42,632 nucleotides of DNA from contig CALVDE010000010.1 of assembly GCA_944326265.1 (NCBI GenBank), positions 1-42,632 on the forward strand, written 5' to 3'. Of this stretch, positions 7,268 through 18,670 are shown piece by piece (position 1 is the stretch's first letter; every line of letters starts with the position of its first letter). The DNA comes from an uncultured Bacteroidales bacterium. Lineage in GTDB: Bacteria > Bacteroidota > Bacteroidia > Bacteroidales > UBA932. Position numbers and translations under genes: made by a program. The notes under the pieces are model-generated. The model saw nothing but the letters and a program-made list of their open reading frames with translations, was not told the DNA's origin and did not search any database.

Positions 7268-9055
7268 ATGAGCAGTTATCTCGAGGTCAACGATGTGTCC
7301 AAGTCCTACGGCCCCCGGGTGCTGTTCGACCATATATCATTCCATATCGACGAGGGGGACAAGATCGCCCTCGTCGCTCCCAACGGTACCGGGAAGACAT
7401 CCCTGCTGAGCATCATAGCCGGCAGGGATTCTTCTGACGGGGACGGCTCGGTGCATTTTCTCAGGGACATCACCGTGGCCTTTCTGGAGCAGGACCAGCA
7501 TTATGACCCGGACCGCACCATCTCGGAAATAGTCATGGAAGGGGCTGGAGACCAGGCAGTTCCGGAGTATGAGGTGGCCTCGGTGCTTTCCCGCCTGAAG
7601 TTGGACGACCCTTTCCGGAAGGCCGGAACTCTCAGCGGAGGAGAGGCCAAGCGGACCGCCATTGCCGCTGTCCTCATCCGCAAGCCGGACTTTCTGGTGC
7701 TGGACGAGCCCACGAACCATCTGGACGTGGACAGCATCGAGTTCCTGGAGGACTACCTCACCCGCTCGCGCTGCACCCTGCTGATGGTCACCCATGACCG
7801 CTATTTCCTGGACAGGGTCTGCAACCAGATTCTGGAACTTGACGGCGGTAAACTCTACCGCTACCAGGGCAACTATTCCTACTTCCTGGAGAAGAGGCAG
7901 GAGCGCATAGCCAATTTCAATGCGGCTACTGACCGCGCCCGCAATCTGCTGCGTACAGAGCTGGACTGGATGCGCCGGATGCCCTGTGCACGCGGAACCA
8001 AGGCCAAGTACCGTATCGATGCGTTCCATGAGCTCAAGGACAGGGCGGGGCAGAGGATAGAGGAACGGCAGATGGAGATACGGGCCGGGATGACCCGCCT
8101 TGGCCGCAAGATAATCAACTGCCGGGGAGTGGGCTACCGATGGGGCGACTTCCCGGTACTTGAGGATTTTACCTACAACTTCGCTCCGGGAGAGAAAATA
8201 GCGGTGGTCGGTCCCAACGGAGTGGGAAAGAGCACTTTCCTCGATCTGCTGGCCGGTGTCCTGGAACCTTCTGCGGGAGAGATAGACAGAGGTGAGACCC
8301 TCCGCATAGGATATTACCGGCAGGAGGGCATCCGTCTGGACGGCAACAAGACTGTCTTCGAGACCGTCTCGGAGATAGCCGATGTGGTGTCCATAGGCAA
8401 GGGCGAGACCGTCTCTGCGATGACCTTTCTCAACTATTTTCTCTTTCCTCCGTCGATGCATCGCAACAGGGTGGCCCTGCTCAGCGGAGGCGAGCGCCGC
8501 CGGCTGTATCTGCTGACAGTGCTGATGCGCAGTCCCAATTTCCTTATACTCGACGAGCCTACCAACGACCTGGACCTTATGACCCTCAATGTTCTTGAAG
8601 AGTATCTGGCCGGCTTTACCGGTTCGCTGCTGATAGTGTCCCATGACCGTTTCTTTGTGGACAAGCTGGCCGACCACCTCTTCATCTTCGAGGGTGGCGG
8701 CCGGGTCAAGGACTTTGTGGGCAGTTACTCCGGTTATCGTCAGTACCTCAAGGACAGGGAGGAGGAGCGCCGTGCCGCCTCGCGGGAAGCCCGCAGGGAA
8801 TCCTCGCCTGCCGCACCGGTGGACAAAGGAGAGAGAAAACGTCGGCTCTCCTACAAGGAAAAGATGGAAAAGGAGCAGCTGGAGAAAGACCTGGCCGCGC
8901 TGGAAGAGGAGAAAAAGGCTCTTGAGGAGCGTCTTTCATCCGGATCTCTATCCCCCGATCAGCTTACCGCCGACTCGATCCGTATCGGGGAGGTGACCCG
9001 TCTGCTCGACGAAAAGGAGCTACGCTGGCTCGAGCTGGACGAGATAGGGAGCTAG
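7268..9055 (+). CDS. uup: ABC-F family ATPase (Uup-like)
   Basis: This 595-residue soluble protein has two ABC ATPase domains and no membrane segment. Domain 1 has Walker A APNGTGKTS (38-46), signature LSGGE (122-126) and Walker B LVLDEPTNHLD (143-153). Domain 2 has GPNGVGKST (315-323), LSGGE (405-409) and LILDEPTNDLD (426-436). A C-terminal charged coiled coil (about 525-590) is the mark of Uup, which acts on ribosomes or branched DNA; ABC-F proteins in general modulate translation. An antibiotic-resistance ABC-F is less likely, as the interdomain linker is short and the coiled-coil tail is present. Its TAG stop shares CTAG with the stop of the convergent STAND gene. Confidence 0.88.
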   Translation: MSSYLEVNDVSKSYGPRVLFDHISFHIDEGDKIALVAPNGTGKTSLLSIIAGRDSSDGDGSVHFLRDITVAFLEQDQHYDPDRTISEIVMEGAGDQAVPEYEVASVLSRLKLDDPFRKAGTLSGGEAKRTAIAAVLIRKPDFLVLDEPTNHLDVDSIEFLEDYLTRSRCTLLMVTHDRYFLDRVCNQILELDGGKLYRYQGNYSYFLEKRQERIANFNAATDRARNLLRTELDWMRRMPCARGTKAKYRIDAFHELKDRAGQRIEERQMEIRAGMTRLGRKIINCRGVGYRWGDFPVLEDFTYNFAPGEKIAVVGPNGVGKSTFLDLLAGVLEPSAGEIDRGETLRIGYYRQEGIRLDGNKTVFETVSEIADVVSIGKGETVSAMTFLNYFLFPPSMHRNRVALLSGGERRRLYLLTVLMRSPNFLILDEPTNDLDLMTLNVLEEYLAGFTGSLLIVSHDRFFVDKLADHLFIFEGGGRVKDFVGSYSGYRQYLKDREEERRAASREARRESSPAAPVDKGERKRRLSYKEKMEKEQLEKDLAALEEEKKALEERLSSGSLSPDQLTADSIRIGEVTRLLDEKELRWLELDEIGS

Positions 9056-12000
9056 TGTCTCTGCTGTCTGCTCCTGATATGGCTTATGCAGGCCTTCAGG
9101 ATAAAGTCTCCGTCCGGCTCGTCATCCATTGACCATACGTCCATGGTCCCGTCGCTCAGGCAGATATGAAGGAATTTCCCGTCATGGCTGAAACGTAGAT
9201 GCCTTATGTCGGCGTAGGAGCCCGTCTGCATCTTGCGCACACACTCCACCGGTCTGATCGACAGGTCCCATATTCTGGTGCAGCCGTCAGAGCAGCCTGT
9301 CGCGATGTACCTGTTGTCGGGGCTGAAGCAGATGTCTTCTATCGGGTATCCGCAGTATATTGAATACGTCATCCTGCTCCTGATGTTGTGAACGGCTATG
9401 TCGTAGCCGTTGAGCATGTCCCCGCAGGCGGCGGTTATCATAGTGCCGTCCAGGCTGATATCGATATCCGTCACCGGTTTCCGGAATATGACAGGGTGTC
9501 CGCTGCCCTCTTCTGTCCGGCTGCCGACGAGTACTGTTCTGCTGTCGGCGATACGGGCGTAGACGGAACTGTCACGGGAGAAAGTCGCTCCTTCATCTTC
9601 GGGGAATGTGCAGGGAACTCCGCAGATGTAGTCATAGTTCAGTTCGTAAGCAAGGCTGCGGAGGATCTTCATGGCTTCCGGGGAAGCCTTTCTGTTGAGG
9701 CTGCTGTCCCGGTACAGGTAGCCGGCAAGTGTTTCCAGGGCCAGTTGCTTGTCGGCGATGCTCTTGTGCGAGGCCAGTTCCTGAACGGAACTCAGCAGCC
9801 TGCGCTCCTGCCGGCTGTCCGAGAGGTACAGGTAGTAGAATATGCCGACGGCAGCTGTGGCCGCAACAGCTGCGAGGATACAGATCACAGTGGTCCTGTG
9901 CCTGCGGAAAATCCGGTGCAATGCATCCATGACAGTCTTTCCATGCGCAGCGGCTGCAGTGCGTGTCCTTTTCAGAGCGGACAGCAGGATGTGTCCTGCC
10001 TTTAGCCTGCGGAATTCCATCAAGGTGCTGTAATGCAGGGAGAACAGGACTGTCAATGCGGACAGGGATGCGCCGGTCAGGCATATCCACAGTGTACGGG
10101 AATTGAATGTGAAGCGGATGAGCCAGAATGTCACGGCCCAGCTGAGCAGAGTAATCAGGAGCATCAGCAGGCTTGCCGTGAGACTTTTCAGTAGGATTTT
10201 CCTTCTGTCCCGGAACTTTCTGCTGTAGCGGTTGACGCTGAGTATGTAGAACAGTGCGCCCGTGGCTGCCAGCCCCACAGCGGTCAGTAGCGTGCATAGC
10301 GGATTGTCCGCCAGGAACCGGTATGTCAGATGACATATATGGAAGACATTGTCTGTCAGGGTGGCTCCGAGCGGGGTCTTGTTGACGGACTTGAAATCCT
10401 TGAACTCCTCGACGGACATGAATGTGTTCTGATGTCCGAACGGAACGTAGAGGGAGATGCCGCGCTTGAGCGAGTCCGGCAGATTGATGAACCTGTCGAA
10501 ATCCGGACTCTCTATGATTATCCTGGATGTTCCTGAGTGTATTCCGGAGCAGTCAAGGACGCGGATGGAAGAAGGGATATGGAGAGTCTGCGGGGCTGGA
10601 CTGAGCACGGTGGCGTAGGAGTTGCCTCCTGCAATCTTGAAGAATGTTCCTCCCCGGTACCGTTCGGTCCTGAATACGGGGGATACAGCGGCTATGCTGT
10701 CGGCTATGGCCCGGCCGGTGATGCCGCCGCCTTGATTGAATGTAAGGTTGCCGTTGAGGTCCAGTACCTTGCAGTAGAATCCTGGAGCAAGAACGGTAAG
10801 ACCTTCGTAGTCTTCAGGAGTGCCCTCCGTATAGATGTTTCCCGGGTATTCGGATGACATCCAGACGGCTTCTCCGTCTTTCAGGATGATTCCTCCGCTC
10901 TTCGTGTATATGCCGCTTTCGGAAGTTATGTAAGTGATCTTTTCGGATGAGGCTATCTCCACCAGCGGTGCCTTGTGCGGTATGACCACGGTGTCCAGTT
11001 CCGTCAGGCTGTTGAAAGACTTGGATGAGAACATGCTCAGTCCGTCTTTCAGAATCAGTTTGCGGACACCGTTGCCAGGCAGGAATGCATCGCTTTCTAT
11101 ATGGGTCAGCGACGGATATCTGTTGAGGTCAAGTACCCGGCCCAGAGGATTGTGCGAGGAGATGATTCTGGTGCGGTCAGCAGAGAAAAGCAGGCCGTCT
11201 TTCCATACACCGGTGTTGTACAGGGTGTCTCCGACACTGTAGATGTAGTACCGGTGCTCTCTCATTCCGTAGGGGAAATAGGCTCCGTCCTTATGGCTCT
11301 TGCTGTCCGATATGAAAACTATCTTGCTGTATGCCGTGTTCCAGAGGATGCCGTCAAGCCATTGATATTCCGAGCCGTCCGGCGGTATGACACTGTTGAT
11401 GCGGGTAGAACCGTATGTGTTGATGCTGCCTGTCTGAGGAGGGATGTTGAGATTCCTTATGCCCGGGCAGTCGGTGATGCTGAGCGACAGAACGGACTCG
11501 CAGTCGAAAAAGACAGTTGTGAGTCCCGGACAGTCGTTGATGTGGATGTGCGTGGCGGGATTGGATATCACAATGTGACGCAGGGACGGGCAGTGCGATA
11601 CTTCCAGTGTGCCTGAGCCTTCCCAGACCAGTTTCTCGGCGTGACTGTCGCTGAAATAGCTGGAGTCCGTCACGACGCCTTCCTTGGGGAATACCTGAAG
11701 TCTGGACTGGTCTCTTCCGCTGATGTCGTAGACAGTGCCGAAAACGGCGAAAATGAATGCAGCCGCCAGGAATGCCAGTATCGTGATCTGTATTAGCCGG
11801 CTCTTTCTCCTGTTGTCGCGCTGTAGCCTGACATCGTATATGGCCCTTGCCAGCATATCGTGGATGAGCTCCACTTTGTCATTGGAGCACTGGAGAATGC
11901 GCCGGCTTCCTGTCAGAAGTGTCTCCCAGTTTGGGAAATTGCGGCTCATCTCTTCCTTGTGGACGGCATTGCGTCTTCCGTCCGCATCCACCAGCCTGTC

Positions 12001-12960
12001 CTCGATGTAATATCTGTACTTGTGCAGTCCCCGTGCTATGGACAGGTAGAAATCCTTGAGGGGGTTGGAACCGAGGTTGCGGACATCCTCAAGAGTAATG
12101 CGCCCGTTTTCCCGTTCTCTTACCCTGTCGTAGAGGACGCTGCAGACCAGAGACAGTATCAGGGTATTGATGTTGCCGTCATTGCCGTCCTTGACAACCT
12201 TGATGATGGCCTTGATGACGGCTTCTTTTGCTGAGCTTTCCGGCGGCAGGATGCTCTCGCCGGGAAACAGGATGACTTCCCGGGCCTCTTCGTCAGTAAG
12301 TCCTGTGAGTCTGTACCGGTTGAATTTGAAGTCGTTGAGATTGAGCCTGTCGATGCAGTCCTCCAGGCGGTACAGATCGTCCTCGCGTATGGAGAGCACG
12401 ATTCTGAATACGGTCTCGTTGTGGTAGCCCTCAGGATAGATCTTGTTGTCATCCATGAGCGAGTGCAGCTGCTCCAGAAGTCTCCATGTTCCGGCTTTGT
12501 CGGATGAGAAATTCTCCTCGAACTGGTCGATGACCACGACCGGGAATACCTCATGCCCGTCCGTGTAGAAATGTCTCGTTGCGAAATAGGCCCAGAGGTA
12601 GTCCTTTTCGGATGGATCTGAAGGAGCGTCGGCGCAGACGCGGACTTCTTCCACGGAAAGCTCGACAGCCCCGGTGATGCTCCTGGCGAAAGCCTCCCTG
12701 CTGTCAGCGGCTCTTCCCATGCTCAGCCTTACGGGGACAGGAATGTAGCCGGAATGTCTCAGTCTGGGAAATACGCCGGCCTCAAGCAGGGATGTCTTTC
12801 CCACGCCCGTGCGTCCGTAAAGTGTGACGAAGAGACTGTTCCTGATCAGGGATGCAAGCTCTTTGGATGCTTTTTCCCTTCCGCAGAACAGATATGTCTG
12901 CTCATCTCCCTCCGAGGGCTCTCTGTACGGTGCAAGACCTTTCCATGGATTCTGTATCAT
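9052..12960 (-). CDS. Membrane STAND NTPase with LRR-like and WD40-like repeats
   Basis: This 1302-residue protein begins like nSTAND-type ATPases (NPWKGLAPYREPSEGDE, then FCGRE). Walker A is GRTGVGKTS (49-57), Walker B is VVVIDQFEE (141-149), a sensor-like SIREDDLYRL sits at 190-199, and a winged-helix-like end VELIHDMLARAI at 363-374. A membrane helix (about 389-411) follows. Residues about 440-870 hold LRR-like units (HCPSL, DCPGL, DCPGI about 20 residues apart, then BspA-like stretches around 605-665). More helices lie at about 886-908, 925-950, 956-976 and 1024-1046. The C-terminus (about 1120-1285) has WD40-like blades including DGCTRIWDL and DGTMDVWSM, too few for a seven-blade propeller. 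STAND proteins are ligand-triggered switches; the repeats are the likely sensors. It is the last gene of a three-gene operon, overlapping the SIR2-TIR gene by ATGA. The architecture is unfamiliar to me as a named system. Confidence 0.8.
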   Translation of the reverse strand: MIQNPWKGLAPYREPSEGDEQTYLFCGREKASKELASLIRNSLFVTLYGRTGVGKTSLLEAGVFPRLRHSGYIPVPVRLSMGRAADSREAFARSITGAVELSVEEVRVCADAPSDPSEKDYLWAYFATRHFYTDGHEVFPVVVIDQFEENFSSDKAGTWRLLEQLHSLMDDNKIYPEGYHNETVFRIVLSIREDDLYRLEDCIDRLNLNDFKFNRYRLTGLTDEEAREVILFPGESILPPESSAKEAVIKAIIKVVKDGNDGNINTLILSLVCSVLYDRVRERENGRITLEDVRNLGSNPLKDFYLSIARGLHKYRYYIEDRLVDADGRRNAVHKEEMSRNFPNWETLLTGSRRILQCSNDKVELIHDMLARAIYDVRLQRDNRRKSRLIQITILAFLAAAFIFAVFGTVYDISGRDQSRLQVFPKEGVVTDSSYFSDSHAEKLVWEGSGTLEVSHCPSLRHIVISNPATHIHINDCPGLTTVFFDCESVLSLSITDCPGIRNLNIPPQTGSINTYGSTRINSVIPPDGSEYQWLDGILWNTAYSKIVFISDSKSHKDGAYFPYGMREHRYYIYSVGDTLYNTGVWKDGLLFSADRTRIISSHNPLGRVLDLNRYPSLTHIESDAFLPGNGVRKLILKDGLSMFSSKSFNSLTELDTVVIPHKAPLVEIASSEKITYITSESGIYTKSGGIILKDGEAVWMSSEYPGNIYTEGTPEDYEGLTVLAPGFYCKVLDLNGNLTFNQGGGITGRAIADSIAAVSPVFRTERYRGGTFFKIAGGNSYATVLSPAPQTLHIPSSIRVLDCSGIHSGTSRIIIESPDFDRFINLPDSLKRGISLYVPFGHQNTFMSVEEFKDFKSVNKTPLGATLTDNVFHICHLTYRFLADNPLCTLLTAVGLAATGALFYILSVNRYSRKFRDRRKILLKSLTASLLMLLITLLSWAVTFWLIRFTFNSRTLWICLTGASLSALTVLFSLHYSTLMEFRRLKAGHILLSALKRTRTAAAAHGKTVMDALHRIFRRHRTTVICILAAVAATAAVGIFYYLYLSDSRQERRLLSSVQELASHKSIADKQLALETLAGYLYRDSSLNRKASPEAMKILRSLAYELNYDYICGVPCTFPEDEGATFSRDSSVYARIADSRTVLVGSRTEEGSGHPVIFRKPVTDIDISLDGTMITAACGDMLNGYDIAVHNIRSRMTYSIYCGYPIEDICFSPDNRYIATGCSDGCTRIWDLSIRPVECVRKMQTGSYADIRHLRFSHDGKFLHICLSDGTMDVWSMDDEPDGDFILKACISHIRSRQQRH

Positions 12961-14252
12961 GACCGTCGCATTAATCTGTTAATAGCATCGAGTATGCCGT
13001 CGCCGCCGTCTTTGGTCCAGCTAACCGAGGTCTCGCTCAGGATGGTGTCCGGGATGCCCTCTCTGTCGGAGCGTATATCGAAGCCGCTCAGGGTTACGGG
13101 CAGTATGGAGCATGTCTTGTTGTCCTCGATGGCGGGCCATTCCACATCCTTGTAGTAACGCCAGACACCGTTGGCGATGTCATATTTCGTCTGTCCGCTC
13201 AGTACTGGAATGAAAATGCGGCACTCGCTTATGGCATTGGATATCCTGACATCATATCTGTCGCCGCCGCTGAGTTCCTTGTCGTCGAACCACACCTTTA
13301 TGCCGGAACGGCTGAGGATGGAGTATATCTGGCAGACGATGGGAAAGTCCTCGGATGCGTATGATATGAATACCCCTCCTGTCATCAGCCTGTTGCGGTA
13401 CTTGCTGTAGACGCTGTTGTCCGGATCGCTGAGCTGAAGGCTGAGCTCGTGGATGAACTTTTTGGAGTTGCCCTTGTCGCCCACGTTGATTTTCGCGAGA
13501 TATTCGGCCAGGTTGCGGTCGGACTCGGACTTGTCGGCCTGGAGAGATATGGCCACGTCTCCGGAGAGATGCTCGAAGTCCTGTCTGAGACAGTACCAGA
13601 AGAAACGGAAATACCAGTCGTCGAACTTGCATCCTATGGCCAGTATCTTCTTGCTCTTCAGGTACTCGATCATGTCAAGCGGAGCATAGTTGCTCAGCCA
13701 TCTGGATATTGCCTTGATGGCGTCGTTCTCTGAGAAGACATAGTCGTAGCCCGAATCGGCCTTACCGAAAGCGTAGTACAGGGTGGGAGGGATGGAGTTG
13801 TATTCGGATTCGGGACAGAAAGCCTTGATATCCTTGGTGTCGTAGAGATTCATTACCCTGAGGCTGTTTCCGAATATGCTGCGCATGAGTGTCTCGAGAT
13901 ATCCGTCGAATGTGGTGGTGATGACTACTCTGAAACACTTGGTGGAGAGCAGTGAGACAAGGTCTTCCGACAGCTCGTCCGCGTCATACCGCCATTCGTT
14001 GCGCAGTATGTCCCGGATTCTTATCTTGTGCTCCCTGGCGCTTCTGCCCAGATATTTTGTCCTTTCATCCAGTGTCTCGTTGCTGAAATAGTCCTGGATG
14101 ATGTATTCCTGGGAATTGCCTCCGGCGTACTGGGGCTTGAGAATCACGTCGCCTCCTATCACCAGGACGTACTCCCCCTGGTATATGTCGCAGCACAGGT
14201 CGGTCAGCACCCTGTCCCCGCCGCCGTGGTTGTTGTTAGCTATCCTGCCCAT
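12957..14252 (-). CDS. Degenerate SIR2-like domain fused to TIR domain
   Basis: This 431-residue soluble protein has two parts. Residues about 20-275 resemble SIR2_2 domains: VLVIGGDVIL (29-38) at the nucleotide loop, VVITTTFDGYLE (109-120) where active enzymes have TTNxD, and LAIGCKFDDWYFRFF (204-218) like the terminal G-x-S-x-x-D region. The usual Asn is Thr and the HG catalytic site appears as YAFGK (160-164), so this half is probably inactive or ligand-binding only. Residues 293-431 are a TIR_2 domain: GVFISYASED (293-302), KVWFDDKELSGGD (319-331), IFIPVLS (346-352) and the candidate catalytic Glu371 in VEW. TIR domains of this kind cleave NAD+ or make cADPR-like signals. The gene overlaps the channel gene by 17 nt and the STAND gene by 4 nt, so the three products are likely made together. 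Confidence 0.82.
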   Translation of the reverse strand: MGRIANNNHGGGDRVLTDLCCDIYQGEYVLVIGGDVILKPQYAGGNSQEYIIQDYFSNETLDERTKYLGRSAREHKIRIRDILRNEWRYDADELSEDLVSLLSTKCFRVVITTTFDGYLETLMRSIFGNSLRVMNLYDTKDIKAFCPESEYNSIPPTLYYAFGKADSGYDYVFSENDAIKAISRWLSNYAPLDMIEYLKSKKILAIGCKFDDWYFRFFWYCLRQDFEHLSGDVAISLQADKSESDRNLAEYLAKINVGDKGNSKKFIHELSLQLSDPDNSVYSKYRNRLMTGGVFISYASEDFPIVCQIYSILSRSGIKVWFDDKELSGGDRYDVRISNAISECRIFIPVLSGQTKYDIANGVWRYYKDVEWPAIEDNKTCSILPVTLSGFDIRSDREGIPDTILSETSVSWTKDGGDGILDAINRLMRRS

Positions 14253-16359
14253 ATTCCTTCAATGTAAATCTGTATATGTCCGGCAGAATATCAATCATTG
14301 CATTGTCATACAGTACTGCATCGGGGTCTATCTCCTTGAGCCTTTCCCAGGAGCATATATCCAGATGCGCTGCCTCCGAGCCTTTCAGCTCCTCCTTGTC
14401 AAAGGTGGAGTCAAGTACCCCGGCCTGCTCGTCGGCAGTGAGGGGGCGGAACCTCATGAGCAGAGTCTCCATATTCCATCTGTAATGCTCTGTCATGGCC
14501 AGAAGCCTGTCGGGATCCACCTCTCCCGTGCCGTCGCAACCGGCGGATCTCAGTTTGGTCCAGACCGAATCGGCGTTATACACGTTGGACCACCATTTTG
14601 CTGCGGCGGATTTGCCGTAGGCTTTTTTCACCCCGGCTGGTCTTGCCGTATTGCCGTGCCTGCCGCTGAGTTTTGCATATATCGCGCTGTAGGCACTTGC
14701 GAACTGGTCCGCGATGGTTTCGGACATCCGGACGGTCCTGTCATCGTAGCACTCTGAATCCATACCGAACGGACGGACATTGCTCATGAGCATATCGTGG
14801 GAGCTGTCAGCCGCCAGGCTGTCTATGACGGAAGAGCCGCAGCGCTGGTACACCAGGACCTGTACGGCTTTGCGGTAAATGATGTCGGGAAGACTGGTGG
14901 CGCAGGAGAGAGCCTGATTGTGGTCAGGGATGCAGACAGCTACGGTCACCCTGGCGTCGGGATTGCTTACGGACTGTGTCAGGAAGTCCTGGATGCCCTT
15001 GTCCTCAGGGCTTCCGCTTATGAATTCCCAGTCCACGTCCGTGACATCGCGGCCCAGATGACCGGTGCCGGAAGGCAGGGTCCATCCGCCGGTACAGCAG
15101 GATGCGGCATCGGCAAAACGCCATCTGGAGACGGAGAACATGCCCTTGAAGCGGTTCTGGAACAGGAGCATCCTGCGGTATGCTTCAGGATCGATGAATG
15201 TTATCCTTGAACGGATGCCCTTGGATGCGAAATTGGGATAGTGGGCGTTCTGGGCTCCTTCCGTGGCAAGTGCGATGCCCATAGGCGACATGCCGACAAT
15301 CACGATATGGACGTATGCGCTGTCGCTGCCGGATATTCCGGAAGTGCCTTCGGGAGGGAGGTATGAGCGTGGATTGCTCTTGCCCGGCCACTGGACGAAA
15401 ATATTGCGGGCCCACTGCTCGTGATAGTTGAAAGGCCGGAAGTCTATGCGTCCCTTGACCGAGTCGCTTATGCCTGAGAGCTGGAATGCCGCGTGGGTCG
15501 TCTGGCTCCCGAACATCACCCTGCAGGTGACAGGTCTGTCCTGTATGCGGCACGAAGCTATGAGCTGAAGACACCTCATCACCGCTGTGTCGTGGCTGGA
15601 ACTGTCCTCATTGTCCAGGGTCTCCTCTCCGGTTACGAATATCTCCGCCGCGCTGTCCAGGCAGAGACTGCCTATATCCCCTTCCGAGCAGCAGTCTCCG
15701 TAGTAGATGATAATCTTTTTACGACCGGAGGCGGGCAGGGCGGTGAAAAGGGCTCTTCTGAATGACTCGACATCCGAGCCCGTCATTATCAGTATGTATC
15801 CTTTCCTTCCGAGCATCTGACGGACGATGCCTGTCGTGGTGCCGCCGCTGCCGATAATGACGGTGTGGCCCTTGAGACGGCGGTATCTTGCCTCTCCCTT
15901 GAGCCAGCGTTCTTTCCTGCGGTCGAACCAGCTCATCATGGTGGATACCAGCAGGCCGTTCAGCAGGAATACGCCCAGAATCGCCATGATTACGCCGACG
16001 GCTCTTCCCTGCTGCGATGTGGTCATGTGCTGGTTGCCCGGGTCGATCATGAGGTAGTAGATGCCCCACAGCCATGACGGATCCTCCTGCCTGTCCCTTA
16101 TCGTGTCGGAAAGCTGGTTGTCCGGGGCTCTGTACAGATCCGGAGTGTAGACCAGTTCCCGTGGAGACACCATGCCGCAGCAGTTGGAGACGATGAACTC
16201 CATGGCGAACGGGGTGAGGACCACGAGCAGAAAGACATATTTGGTAAAACCGTTGATGATGCAGCGGTCCCTGAGTATGGGTTTGCCTATCAGGATGAAT
16301 AGTGTGAGCAGCCAGTAAAGCACGCCTATGACACCGATGATGTCGATAATAGTTTTCAT
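14236..16359 (-). CDS. CASTOR/POLLUX-like ion channel with RCK folds and RyR-like domain
   Basis: This 707-residue protein has membrane helices at about 6-27, 39-58 and 118-144. A pore-loop region at 96-112 carries DPGNQ (106-110), placed like the D-x-GNH filter of plant CASTOR/POLLUX channels, and is followed by a helix and a charged linker as in those proteins. Two Rossmann/RCK-like folds follow: HTVIIGSGGTTTG (165-177) and VHIVIVGMSPMG (350-361). The C-terminus (about 615-700) reads as a RyR domain: TEHYRWN near 623-629, then HLDICSWERL and LYDNAMIDIL. RyR domains in bacterial conflict proteins are thought to bind nucleotide-like ligands, an idea taken from the family. It is the first gene of the operon with its own promoter, and is followed by SIR2-TIR with a 17-nt overlap. 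Ion selectivity cannot be read from sequence. Confidence 0.78.
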   Translation of the reverse strand: MKTIIDIIGVIGVLYWLLTLFILIGKPILRDRCIINGFTKYVFLLVVLTPFAMEFIVSNCCGMVSPRELVYTPDLYRAPDNQLSDTIRDRQEDPSWLWGIYYLMIDPGNQHMTTSQQGRAVGVIMAILGVFLLNGLLVSTMMSWFDRRKERWLKGEARYRRLKGHTVIIGSGGTTTGIVRQMLGRKGYILIMTGSDVESFRRALFTALPASGRKKIIIYYGDCCSEGDIGSLCLDSAAEIFVTGEETLDNEDSSSHDTAVMRCLQLIASCRIQDRPVTCRVMFGSQTTHAAFQLSGISDSVKGRIDFRPFNYHEQWARNIFVQWPGKSNPRSYLPPEGTSGISGSDSAYVHIVIVGMSPMGIALATEGAQNAHYPNFASKGIRSRITFIDPEAYRRMLLFQNRFKGMFSVSRWRFADAASCCTGGWTLPSGTGHLGRDVTDVDWEFISGSPEDKGIQDFLTQSVSNPDARVTVAVCIPDHNQALSCATSLPDIIYRKAVQVLVYQRCGSSVIDSLAADSSHDMLMSNVRPFGMDSECYDDRTVRMSETIADQFASAYSAIYAKLSGRHGNTARPAGVKKAYGKSAAAKWWSNVYNADSVWTKLRSAGCDGTGEVDPDRLLAMTEHYRWNMETLLMRFRPLTADEQAGVLDSTFDKEELKGSEAAHLDICSWERLKEIDPDAVLYDNAMIDILPDIYRFTLKEYGQDS

Positions 16360-16387: not shown

Positions 16388-16395
16388 CAAAAATA
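16388..16395 (-). promoter_or_regulatory. -7 element for the channel/TIR/STAND operon
   Basis: Read on the minus strand, TATTTTTG matches TAnnTTTG and lies about 28 nt upstream of the channel ATG at 16359. The AT-rich stretch around it is the only promoter-like sequence in the 176-nt gap to the ABC permease gene, so the three-gene operon probably has its own start. Confidence 0.5.
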
Positions 16396-16535: not shown

Positions 16536-17225
16536 TCAACTGAACTGCATACGTCTGAAGAGCAGATAGGATACTGTCCAGATAATTGCTGGAAGTGCGT
16601 AGGAGTAGATCAGAAAGACCGGGCCGTTCAGTATGCTTTCTGTCCTGAAAATGCTTAGGAAGATGCCGTGGACGGCAAGTACGGCAAGCAGGGTAAGGGA
16701 AAGCTTGTGCCTGCGGAAGAAGATGTTGCCCAGAATGAATACTGACTGGTACAGGCATATCTTTCCGAAATCTGACCAGAAGGAGCAGAAGTCCGTCCCT
16801 CCTGAGTCCCAGATCATGCCGCTGAATCCGTTTCCCCCCGATACGAGGACGAGGCCGCAGTCCAGGATGTAGGCAGCTGTGTAGAATCCGAAAGGCAGTA
16901 TTATGGCTGAAACGAGCATCATCGTGCCGAATTTTATCCAGGGAGGCAGCGGAAGCATCGCGTATATGCCGCCTTCAGACGGGTCGTTGATAAAGCCGTA
17001 TACGGAAGACGGAACGCAGAAAGAGAATACCAGCGCGGCCATATAAACGACCGGACCCCTGTCCGGAGGCCCTGCCTGGGCCCCTGTCAGAAGCATCACG
17101 ATCCAGTAGACCGTGTACAGCCCTGCTGTCGCGGCTGCCGACGGCCACACTCTCCGTATGCCTTTTCCTGTATCGGCGAGAATCAGCCGCAGGGTTTTAT
17201 GGAGCAGGGAAGCCGGGCTATTCAT
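16536..17225 (-). CDS. ABC-2-like multispanning permease, partner of adjacent ATPase
   Basis: The product is 229 residues from the ATG at 17225. It has about six hydrophobic segments and no recognised motif, as is normal for ABC-2-like permeases. An upstream in-frame ATG at 17255 would add ten residues but give a 38-nt overlap; the ATG at 17225 gives an 8-nt overlap with the ATPase stop (ATGAATAG), typical of translational coupling. The gene immediately follows its ATPase partner and most likely encodes the membrane half of an exporter. The substrate is unknown. The 176 nt after it hold the promoter of the channel operon and a weak imperfect hairpin, but no clear terminator. Confidence 0.7.
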   Translation of the reverse strand: MNSPASLLHKTLRLILADTGKGIRRVWPSAAATAGLYTVYWIVMLLTGAQAGPPDRGPVVYMAALVFSFCVPSSVYGFINDPSEGGIYAMLPLPPWIKFGTMMLVSAIILPFGFYTAAYILDCGLVLVSGGNGFSGMIWDSGGTDFCSFWSDFGKICLYQSVFILGNIFFRRHKLSLTLLAVLAVHGIFLSIFRTESILNGPVFLIYSYALPAIIWTVSYLLFRRMQFS

Positions 17226-18168
17226 CGCGCACCTCCTTTTCCCGGAGGATGTCACTCCTTAGGTACTCCAGGACTTTCCTGCCTCCGGATATGCAGGCAT
17301 TGAACAGTACCTCCAGGTCCACTCCGCTTCCTGAACGGTAAGATTCCGTTTCCGCTGCCTGGTCCGATATGAAGTGATGCGCTTTGTCTTCGGCCCAAAG
17401 TTCTGGCGGCTCAGTGCGTGAGACCGCGCCCGGCATGATGTTGACAGCTCCAGCCGCAGTCCGCTCGCTGTACAGTGCTCCTGTCTCAGGTGTCCCGGTC
17501 CTGGTAAAATGCACTCTGGCGGCGATTTCTTCCAGGGATGCGTTGAGCAGCAGCCGTCCGGAATCGATGACGGTTACATGATCTGTTATCTCATCTACTT
17601 CCCTGACCTGGTGCGTGGAAAGCACGATGGTCCTGTCAGGCCTTCTGTGTCCGGCCAACATGCGTCTCAGGCACAGTCTGGAAGGAATATCGAGTCCGTT
17701 GCCGGGTTCGTCAAGGAGCAACAGACGTGTGTTGAGCGACAGAGCGAAGGCTATCAGTGCCTTTTTTTTCTGTCCGGCGGACAGCTTGCGGAACGAATCG
17801 CCTGGGTTTACATCGAATGCTTCCAGGTATCCGCGCAGAGCCCCGCTGTCATAGTGGGAATAGAATACACCGTAGCTGTCGGCGAATTTCACGACCGGCA
17901 TGTCCGGAGCATTGAAGCTTTCCGGCACGAAACAAACTTCGTCCAGGAACTCCGTCCTGCGTTCAAACGGTGTCATGCCGTTTACCGATATCCGTCCGCC
18001 AGTGCATTTGAGAAGTCCGGCCATCAGGCGCATCAGGGTGGTCTTGCCTGCCCCGTTCCTGCCCAGAAGCCCGTAGACTGCTCCGTCATTCAGCTTGAGG
18101 CTCAGGCCGTCGTAGATACGTCGTCCCCTATAGCTGAACATAAGTTCATCTATCTGTATCATAAGCAT
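17218..18168 (-). CDS. ABC transporter ATP-binding protein
   Basis: The 316-residue protein has Walker A GRNGAGKTT (36-44), signature LSAGQ (129-133), Walker B LLLLDEPGNGLD (149-160) and a switch His in STHQ. The C-terminal 100 residues extend beyond the nucleotide-binding fold, as in bacitracin/CcmA-type exporters. Sequence around the signature, QKKKALIAFAL, resembles the YtrB group, in which a GntR regulator usually precedes the ATPase; no such regulator is present here. An ATG at 18162 is an equally good start. A near-consensus CATATTTG (minus strand, 18233-18240) may be the promoter. The product pairs with the permease downstream. Confidence 0.88.
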   Translation of the reverse strand: MLMIQIDELMFSYRGRRIYDGLSLKLNDGAVYGLLGRNGAGKTTLMRLMAGLLKCTGGRISVNGMTPFERRTEFLDEVCFVPESFNAPDMPVVKFADSYGVFYSHYDSGALRGYLEAFDVNPGDSFRKLSAGQKKKALIAFALSLNTRLLLLDEPGNGLDIPSRLCLRRMLAGHRRPDRTIVLSTHQVREVDEITDHVTVIDSGRLLLNASLEEIAARVHFTRTGTPETGALYSERTAAGAVNIMPGAVSRTEPPELWAEDKAHHFISDQAAETESYRSGSGVDLEVLFNACISGGRKVLEYLRSDILREKEVRDE

Positions 18169-18308
18169 ATAATTAAAATGTTCAGTGCTGCCGGCTGCCG
18201 TGGGACGTTACGGTTGCCTTTTCTTCACTCTGCAAATATGAGACAATAATCCGGCATATCAAAATTAAGATAGAAAGTTTTGATAAAATTGGAAATTCAG
18301 ACGATATC

Positions 18309-18564
18309 CGGCTTTGCCGCATATCCTGTTGCGCCTCGGCAATGCAAAATTGAATAAATTCATTTGCATTGCTCTTTTGGTTTCTGGGTATATTCGGCTT
18401 TGCCGCATATCCTGTTGCGCCTCGGCAATGCAAAATTGAATAAATTCATTTGCATTGCTCTTTTGGTTTCTGGGTATATTCGGCTTTGCCGCATATCCTG
18501 TTGCGCCTCGGCAATGCAAAATTGAATAAATTCATTTGCATTGCTCTCGGCTTCTGCGTATATT
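18309..18564 (+). repeat. Three tandem copies of an 86-bp repeat with internal hairpin
   Basis: Units begin at 18309, 18395 and 18481 (period 86). The first two are nearly identical; the third is about 2 nt shorter and diverges in its last 25 nt. Each contains a perfect 10-bp inverted repeat, GCAATGCAAA and TTTGCATTGC, at 18339-18372, 18425-18458 and 18511-18544, plus a short CGGC-TTT-GCCG hairpin. Because 86 is not a multiple of 3, the open frames across this region are chance products. The last copy merges directly into the tRNA-Ser promoter. Confidence 0.9.
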
Positions 18565-18582: not shown

Positions 18583-18670
18583 GGAGAGATGCCGGAGTGG
18601 TCGAACGGGGCAGTCTCGAAAACTGTTGAACTCCTTGTGGGTTCCGGGGGTTCGAATCCCCCTCTCTCCG
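18583..18670 (+). tRNA. tRNA-Ser (anticodon CGA)
   Basis: The 88-nt cloverleaf has acceptor stem GGAGAGA/TCTCTCC, a long class II variable arm, anticodon loop CTCGAAA giving CGA (serine, codon UCG) and T arm GGGGG-TTCGAAT-CCCCC. The discriminator is G and CCA is not encoded. Confidence 0.95.

What the first reader, a model, noticed from the sequence alone, without database searches (positions are those of the whole stretch)
9052..16359. Three-gene operon: RyR-tailed channel, SIR2-TIR, and membrane STAND ATPase
Seen: three genes on the minus strand, overlapping by 17 and 4 nt, behind their own -7 element, between ordinary housekeeping genes. Known: STAND ATPases, TIR and SIR2 domains, and RyR domains recur in bacterial anti-phage systems. 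Inference: the STAND protein senses a trigger through its LRR/WD40-like parts, the TIR makes a nucleotide signal or depletes NAD+, and the channel acts on the membrane. I know of no named defence system with this exact trio.
Basis: partly seen in the sequence, partly recalled or inferred. Interest (0 to 1): 0.9.

Follow-up and report, generated by a model that had tools for sequence, protein, structure and literature searches.

The report
TIR enzyme, membrane receptor, RyR channel
Three overlapping genes in a gut bacterium look like a sensor-to-channel alarm, probably against viruses, in which a membrane receptor switches on an enzyme whose NAD-derived signal opens an ion channel carrying a ryanodine-receptor-like domain; none of this has been tested in the laboratory.

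Summary
Three minus-strand genes overlap by 17 and 4 nt: a 707-aa channel, a 431-aa SIR2-TIR protein and a 1302-aa nSTAND1 protein. The channel is RCK-gated with a CASTOR-like pore motif. Its tail belongs to the RyR superfamily by family profile (not by its own Pfam score) and keeps the four residues that bind ADP-ribose signals in the phage protein RyDEP. The TIR keeps its glutamate; the SIR2 part has lost its catalytic His and Asn. The STAND has a conserved NTPase, a membrane helix and a variable, probably extracytoplasmic, sensor.

The genes travel together, with a hierarchy: SIR2-TIR is followed by nSTAND1 in 26 of 30 loci; the channel is an optional third part, contiguous with the pair in 5 of 92 channel loci but near only 1 of 15 SIR2-TIR genes found independently. 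TIR genes lie within 5 kb of the channel in 31 of 92 loci. Five same-genus genomes have the flanking genes side by side without the trio.

Best reading: receptor, then TIR signal, then RyR-gated channel; probably abortive anti-phage immunity. It works like Thoeris but with a channel effector that my searches found nowhere in print. Untested biochemically.

The parts
14236..16359 (-). 707-aa RyR-tailed RCK channel: N-terminal membrane part, two RCK-like Rossmann domains, C-terminal RyR-like tail
16030..16047 (-). pore motif IDPGNQ (residues 105-110), like the CASTOR filter AD-S/A-GNH
   Evidence: CASTOR motif from PMC6697748
14290..14505 (-). RyR-like tail, residues 619-690, with H625, W628, H665, D685
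   Evidence: ligand residues from PMC13232231
12957..14252 (-). 431-aa SIR2-TIR protein
13446..14174 (-). SIR2-like domain (residues 27-269), KomC/ThsA-like by profile, catalytic His and Asn positions replaced
12993..13373 (-). TIR domain (residues 294-420)
13140..13142 (-). putative catalytic Glu371 of the TIR domain
9052..12960 (-). 1302-aa membrane nSTAND1 protein
11806..12957 (-). nSTAND1 NTPase (residues 2-385): P-loop, DQFEE Walker B, HD motif
11740..11796 (-). predicted transmembrane helix after the NTPase (residues 389-407)
10297..11733 (-). region with weak, sub-threshold BspA-LRR similarity (residues 410-888), predicted extracytoplasmic
9838..10296 (-). four further hydrophobic helices (within residues 889-1041)
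9115..9588 (-). WD40 propeller part (residues 1125-1282)
16388..16395 (-). TATTTTTG, match to the Bacteroidota -7 element (consensus recalled)
7268..9055 (+). ABC-F ATPase, one edge of the insertion site
16536..17255 (-). 239-aa protein, probable ABC permease by position only, other edge of the insertion site

Best explanation
A three-part defence circuit. (1) The nSTAND1 protein sits in the inner membrane with its NTPase in the cytosol and a variable sensor, probably in the periplasm. (2) A trigger, most likely phage-related, makes the NTPase exchange nucleotide and oligomerise, which assembles and activates the cytosolic SIR2-TIR protein. (3) The TIR domain, through Glu371, converts NAD+ into an ADP-ribose-type messenger; the degenerate SIR2 part acts as a binding or assembly platform. 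(4) The messenger binds the RyR tail on the RCK gating ring of the channel, the CASTOR-like pore opens, cations flow and the cell stops supporting the phage. Shown by sequence: gene order, linkage in other genomes, domains, conserved residues, the empty site. Inferred: steps 2 to 4, the topology, the tetramer, and that the trigger is phage.
For: SIR2-TIR followed by nSTAND1 in 26 of 30 loci examined (9 of 9, 12 of 15, 5 of 6; some are close relatives of each other). All three genes contiguous in 5 of 92 channel loci, SIR2-TIR within 10 kb in 9 of 92 (window included). On a quick channel tree of 88 rows the SIR2-TIR label (9 rows) needs 7 changes, shuffled mean 8.8, so the linkage arose or was lost repeatedly. 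A TIR gene lies within 5 kb of the channel in 31 of 92 loci; 43 of those 44 proteins are confirmed by Pfam; baseline 52 TIR_2 matches in 79 relatives, 0.24 per Mb. RyR tail: profile of 86 tails against 34 stand-alone RyR proteins scores 42.75, E=2.7e-07, against at most 17.3 in the 94 of 100 column shuffles that parsed and 12.4 reversed. In 18 channels collected without the motif, W628, H665 and D685 are invariant and H625 is His in 16 (Lys in L036, L038). The matching positions bind or cleave 2'/3'cADPR in RyDEP (PMC13232231). PDB profile search: DMI1 4.1e-05, CASTOR 4.9e-05; Foldseek: Slo1, GsuK with ADP or NAD, CASTOR. Pore part 93% identical between two species while the second RCK region is 47% and the RyR tail 61%. 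Variable STAND C-terminus and an empty site in 5 of 10 fetched same-genus genomes fit a defence cassette.
Against: The channel was near only 1 of 15 SIR2-TIR loci found without using the channel (several stretches end early), so the core pair exists without it. The window's own tail has no Pfam RyR hit; a smaller profile comparison (22 tails) aligned the wrong stretch at 32% probability, and the 22-tail profile found no RyR chain in the PDB. The TIR glutamate is replaced in 2 of 9 SIR2-TIR proteins. TIR frequency falls only modestly with distance (24 of 395 genes at 0-2 kb, 4 of 149 at 8-10 kb), so part of the enrichment may reflect defence islands. Few of 108 neighbours matched known defence models at 1e-20, and no control was run. 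4-fold sites in the pore part are also more alike (54%) than in most of the locus (35-51%), so its identity may not be constraint alone. No biochemical or phage data.
Confidence: 0.5

Rival explanations
1. The SIR2-TIR plus nSTAND1 pair is a complete NAD+-depleting abortive system, and the channel is an accessory with a separate trigger or merely a neighbour.
For: 26 of 30 SIR2-TIR loci carry the STAND gene, and of the 21 found without the channel only one showed it; many bacterial TIRs kill by NAD+ loss (established knowledge).
Against: The channel overlaps SIR2-TIR by 17 nt in the window and is contiguous with the pair in 5 loci in two different orders; TIRs of other kinds are also near the channel.
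Confidence: 0.2
2. The RyR tail is a signal-removing or NAD-status module: the channel reports NAD+ or ADPR levels for ion homeostasis (GsuK-like) and is not a defence effector.
For: Foldseek finds GsuK bound to ADP and NAD; RyDEP uses the same residues as a glycosidase (PMC13232231).
Against: Patchy distribution (19 of 148 genomes, own included), empty site and TIR neighbourhood are unlike housekeeping.
Confidence: 0.12
3. The TIR domain acts as a scaffold rather than an enzyme, recruiting the channel by direct contact.
For: Two divergent relatives lack the glutamate; the SIR2 half lacks its catalytic residues.
Against: The glutamate is kept in 7 of 9 SIR2-TIR proteins and its column is at least 90% conserved in the alignment of 44 channel-neighbour TIR proteins; the RyR ligand residues are kept.
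Confidence: 0.08
4. A non-defence signalling module for envelope stress or a surface cue.
For: Predicted extracytoplasmic sensor; few known defence neighbours.
Against: Single copy, patchy, variable sensor and a TIR/STAND make-up that established knowledge ties to immune systems.
Confidence: 0.1

Closest known systems
Thoeris (TIR makes an ADP-ribose signal, a partner effector senses it)
   Same: TIR enzyme beside a protein with an ADPR-signal-binding fold; the first seven Foldseek hits of the SIR2-TIR model are ThsA chains
   Different: Signal reader is an RyR-like tail on an ion channel, not SLOG or Macro; TIR is fused to a degenerate SIR2 domain; an nSTAND1 receptor is added
Avs and other STAND immune receptors
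   Same: STAND NTPase with conserved switch residues and variable C-terminal part, encoded with a TIR/SIR2-type protein
   Different: Effector is a separate gene; the STAND protein has a membrane helix and WD40, WG or other repeats (Avs features recalled)
CASTOR/POLLUX/DMI1 plant nuclear channels
   Same: RCK gating ring by profile and fold; 58 of 92 channels carry x-D-[PSAT]-G-N-Q against AD-S/A-GNH in CASTOR (PMC6697748, passages)
   Different: Bacterial, extra RyR-like tail; ion selectivity unknown; 13 of 92 showed no match to my pore pattern
RyDEP phage RyR-domain proteins (PMC13232231)
   Same: RyR domain with H, W, H, D ligand residues
   Different: Here the domain is fused to a host channel in loci rich in TIR genes, on the opposite side of the conflict
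KomC (Kongming) and ThsA SIR2 domains
   Same: SIR2 part aligns to KomC (4e-08) and ThsA (0.0026)
   Different: KomC His146 position is Phe here; Asn position is Thr

Membership tests
nSTAND1 (PF20703) | score above gathering cut-off, P-loop and Walker B | tested here: met
   81.7 bits against 27.1; 15 of 15 aligned homologues hit at E<=0.001; G52, G54, K55, D145, Q146, E149 invariant
TIR_2 (PF13676) | score above cut-off | tested here: met
   51.7 bits against 28
Catalytic TIR NADase | catalytic Glu | tested here: met
   E371 present; 7 of 9 SIR2-TIR proteins keep it
Catalytic TIR NADase | NAD+ cleavage | not testable with these tools
   needs enzyme assay
SIR2 NADase (KomC/ThsA type) | family score | tested here: met
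   SIR2_2 28.2 bits against 24.5; KomC 4e-08
SIR2 NADase (KomC/ThsA type) | catalytic His and Asn | tested here: not met
   window has Phe and Thr; among 16 aligned relatives no His in 16, Asn only in 2 (L160, L165)
RyR (PF02026) | window protein above Pfam cut-off | tested here: not met
   no hit, whole protein or tail
RyR superfamily | homology of the tail family and ligand residues | tested here: met
   2 of 13 channels and 3 of 22 tails hit PF02026; 86-tail profile E=2.7e-07; against: 22-tail comparison failed
CASTOR/POLLUX-like RCK channel | RCK gating ring and D-x-G-N pore motif | tested here: met
CASTOR/POLLUX-like RCK channel | Ca2+-selective conduction | not testable with these tools
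   needs electrophysiology
Thoeris | TIR gene beside a ThsA-type effector with SLOG or Macro sensor | tested here: not met
   no SLOG or Macro hit in the three proteins
Thoeris | TIR product activates the effector | not testable with these tools
   needs biochemistry
Avs | effector fused N-terminally to the STAND NTPase (feature recalled) | tested here: not met
   NTPase match starts at residue 2; effector is a separate gene
Named PADLOC defence system | full-length match to a model | tested here: not met
   partial TIR- or SIR2-region hits in SIR2-TIR, none in the channel, E 0.02-0.05 in STAND
Anti-phage defence system | protection against phage | not testable with these tools
   needs phage challenge

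The most novel reading that the evidence does not exclude
A bacterial immune circuit in which a TIR-made cyclic ADP-ribose isomer directly gates an RyR-domain, CASTOR-like cation channel: a prokaryotic counterpart of the cADPR-to-RyR link proposed in animals, driven by a membrane receptor with an extracytoplasmic sensor.
Probability: 0.35. Interest if true: 0.93.

Novelty: new variant of a known kind. Interest (0 to 1): 0.72.

Why it matters
The one RyR-domain immunity paper I found (PMC13232231) concerns phage proteins that destroy or soak up TIR signals; a host channel carrying the same fold in loci rich in TIR genes would be a natural receiving end. If true, it adds an ion channel with a directly testable ligand to TIR immunity, joins two modules known from animal and plant channels (RyR repeat, CASTOR-like pore and gating ring) in one bacterial protein, and makes the open question whether RyR repeats sense cADPR-type ligands testable in a small protein.

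Tried and rejected
Direct assignment of the channel by Pfam, PADLOC, NCBIfam and PHROGs gave nothing above cut-off. A first RyR profile comparison with 22 tails failed (wrong stretch, 32%), and that tail profile found no RyR chain in the PDB. With all 86 usable tails it worked. In one search a few of the 30 shuffle values came from a faulty read-out, so I repeated the control (94 of 100 shuffles parsed). The 86 tails were cut out by the pattern E[HKN].RW, so the conservation of E624, R627 and W628 there is by construction, and the genome-contig scan also used a motif pattern as one of two seeds; I therefore cite H625/W628 from the 18 sequences. Single-HMM test of tails: 20 of 87 at E<0.01 against 1 of 435 shuffled, the window not among them.

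Mobile-element origin: no plasmid match for SIR2-TIR or channel, one weak phage-record match covering 33% of the channel, no channel in viral contigs, TIR-only matches for SIR2-TIR there. I did not search for integrases and claim no mobile element. A defence-island reading is only weakly supported: 108 complete neighbour ORFs of at least 220 aa from 17 loci (cut at 49,000 residues, so some were left out) gave 25 PADLOC models at 1e-20, among them DpdF, MkoA/C, PDC-S01, PsyrT, BrxHI; mad3 (5 members) looks like ABC ATPases; no control was run. I rejected a working SIR2 NADase because both catalytic positions are replaced, and 'the trio is an obligate unit' because of the converse test.
Full report
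WHAT IS THERE. The three ORFs, their strand and their 17- and 4-nt overlaps are exactly as described. Each protein has one match, itself, in the 2.36-Mb genome, and SIR2-TIR is the genome's only TIR_2 match at E<=1e-5. A genome of the same genus (G007) has a 5358-bp contig that agrees in length and channel sequence with a record titled Candidatus Coprenecus stercorigallinarum, so the window is probably from a Coprenecus species (inference).

THE CHANNEL. Alone, the 707-aa protein hits no family above cut-off. Of 13 aligned relatives (window included), 8 hit Pfam Slo-like_RCK and 2 hit RyR at E<=0.01. Their profile finds plant DMI1 (4.1e-05) and CASTOR (4.9e-05) first in the PDB. The AlphaFold2 model (18 sequences, pLDDT 83.7, pTM 0.79) matches Slo1, GsuK and CASTOR. 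The pore motif is IDPGNQ; 58 of 92 channels carry x-D-[PSAT]-G-N-Q, including ADSGNQ, IDAGNQ and VDAGNQ, 13 showed no match to the pattern. The CASTOR filter is given as AD265S(A)GNHA in PMC6697748 (passages seen).

THE TAIL. PMC13232231 (parts 1, 2 and 6 of 6 and passages seen) shows that the RyR-domain protein RyDEP uses H75, W78, H100 and D117 on 2'/3'cADPR. In the 18-sequence alignment, which was collected by protein similarity, W628, H665 and D685 are invariant and H625 is His in 16. Aligning 86 channel tails with 34 stand-alone RyR proteins puts these residues on the positions of H32, W35, H57 and D74, which are invariant in 20 stand-alone proteins. Among the 86 tails, H665 is kept in 83 and D685 in 74, the rest being gaps (H625 and W628 partly selected by the cut-out pattern). 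The profile score is 42.75 (E=2.7e-07) against at most 17.3 in the 94 of 100 shuffles that parsed, and 12.4 reversed. The window's own tail stays below Pfam detection and a 22-tail comparison failed, so 'RyR-like' is a statement about its family.

SIR2-TIR. TIR_2 and SIR2_2 pass their cut-offs. The model is modest (9 sequences, pLDDT 70.7, pTM 0.58); Foldseek finds ThsA, TIR domains, SARM1 and DSR2. In the profile alignment, KomC's His146 falls on the Phe of the FG motif and the Asn of TTN on Thr (the H146N chain in the same listing marks the position). Among 16 aligned relatives none has His there and 2 have the Asn. The TIR glutamate is kept in 7 of 9 (Asp in L096, Lys in L057).

STAND. P-loop, DQ.E and HD residues are invariant across 15 relatives, and every invariant column lies within the first 370 residues. 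The C-terminal parts differ: WD40 in 4 of 15, WG repeats in L103, no strong repeat in L068. A hydrophobic helix follows the NTPase in 19 of the 20 homologues in which a helix was found, with more Lys/Arg before than after in all 19 (L074, in fragments, is the exception; two further cut or partial ones showed none). By the positive-inside rule the sensor lies outside the cytoplasm. This used Kyte-Doolittle windows, not a trained predictor.

DO THEY TRAVEL TOGETHER? One scan of genome contigs gave 268 relatives of the channel, of which the tool kept the best 80. With 18 loci from the genome search and the window, 92 distinct channel loci were annotated (duplicates and L114, without a callable channel ORF, dropped). 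Nine carry SIR2-TIR, each with nSTAND1 as the next gene (L070 and L096 STANDs are cut by the locus end, L074's is in two ORFs). All three are contiguous in 5 (window, L044, L072, L074, L103). On a quick channel tree of 88 rows the label needs 7 changes, shuffled mean 8.8 (13 of 500 as low), with long-branch warnings. Converse test: a SIR2-TIR profile matched 54 of 393 order genomes, many by the TIR part only. I fetched 15 of the stronger, longer matches: 12 have STAND as the next sizeable gene (gaps of 250-440 nt in L165-L167), L161, L162 and L168 do not; the channel is in 1 (L157, cut), a separate RyR-domain ORF in 3 (L154, L158, L163). Several of these stretches are short. Phylum search: 6 of 395 genomes, own included; of 6 loci fetched, 5 have STAND (L228 in broken ORFs), and the contig of L227 ends. 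Total 26 of 30, not all independent.

TIR AND THE CHANNEL. 31 of 92 channel loci have a TIR gene within 5 kb (44 genes); Pfam confirms TIR_2 in 43 of 44. The baseline is 52 TIR_2 matches in 79 genomes, about 212.9 Mb from rounded sizes, so about 0.0024 expected per 10 kb. Caveats: the 31 include the window and its ortholog, the TIR model was trained on these loci, and defence genes cluster. Stand-alone RyR genes show a sharper gradient: 60 of 395 genes at 0-2 kb against 1 of 149 at 8-10 kb.

THE SITE. Of 19 same-genus genomes, 18 carry the ABC-F gene. Of 10 fetched besides the window and G012, 5 (L207, L208, L209, L213, L214) have ABC-F followed by the 239-aa gene and the ABC ATPase without the trio (L209 with an 82-aa ORF between); G012 has the trio beside ABC-F plus other genes; L210 has other genes there; L211, L212, L215 and L216 differ more. 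The trio is a variable insertion. Between window and G012 the channel's first 160 residues are 93% identical, SIR2-TIR 83-85%, STAND NTPase 78%, STAND sensor regions 58-61%, residues 341-600 of the channel 47%, RyR tail 61%. 4-fold sites are 35-54% identical (54% in the pore part; ABC-F 57%), so the pore's identity reflects constraint at least in part.

HOW IT LIKELY WORKS. See the best explanation. Shown: architecture, residues, linkage, empty site. Inferred: activation, product, gating, phage trigger. The nearest known kind is TIR signalling with a sensing effector (Thoeris logic) under a STAND receptor; the locus fails the Thoeris and Avs membership tests, so it is filed under neither.

IN PRINT? 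Searches, and look-ups in PMC9503650 (no RyR) and PMC7159879 (passages only), showed no host RyR-tailed channel linked to TIR or STAND genes. The library holds open-licence papers only. Burroughs et al. 2015 on nucleotide-centred conflict systems (recalled, not read) may mention RyR domains.

Noticed in passing
59 of 92 channel loci, e.g. L033:8553-8837: A separate RyR-domain gene (about 95-110 aa, or 300-380 aa) lies within 5 kb of most RyR channels, with the four ligand residues invariant in 20 aligned; it could be a signal sponge or hydrolase acting as an off switch. The window's genome has no PF02026 match.
   Followed up: partly
L052:2444-4127 and other loci: Recurrent genes near RyR channels: an M48 peptidase with zinc ribbon (about 292 aa, 8 loci), an 85-aa protein (8 loci) and a 172-aa zinc-ribbon protein (6 loci).
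   Followed up: no
L049:12063-12665 and 14 more loci: A 187-209-aa protein next to RyR channels in 15 loci, with weak Sigma70_r2 similarity in the one tested.
   Followed up: no
L026, L077:6856-9855, L078: A 999-1001-aa protein, PPDK_N in the one tested, directly upstream of the RyR channel in 3 loci.
   Followed up: no
window 18304-18547: 86-bp tandem repeat, 2.8 copies at 99% matches, just before tRNA-Ser at 18583.
   Followed up: no
L154:14405-18284 and L155:2216-6080: Two proteins of 377 and about 912 aa follow the SIR2-TIR/STAND pair in two same-genus genomes; those of L154 have no Pfam hit at 0.01.
   Followed up: no
channel-neighbour TIR genes, alignment A10: Some TIR proteins beside channels also carry WD40, BspA-LRR, Sel1, kinase or carboxypeptidase-regulatory domains.
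   Followed up: partly
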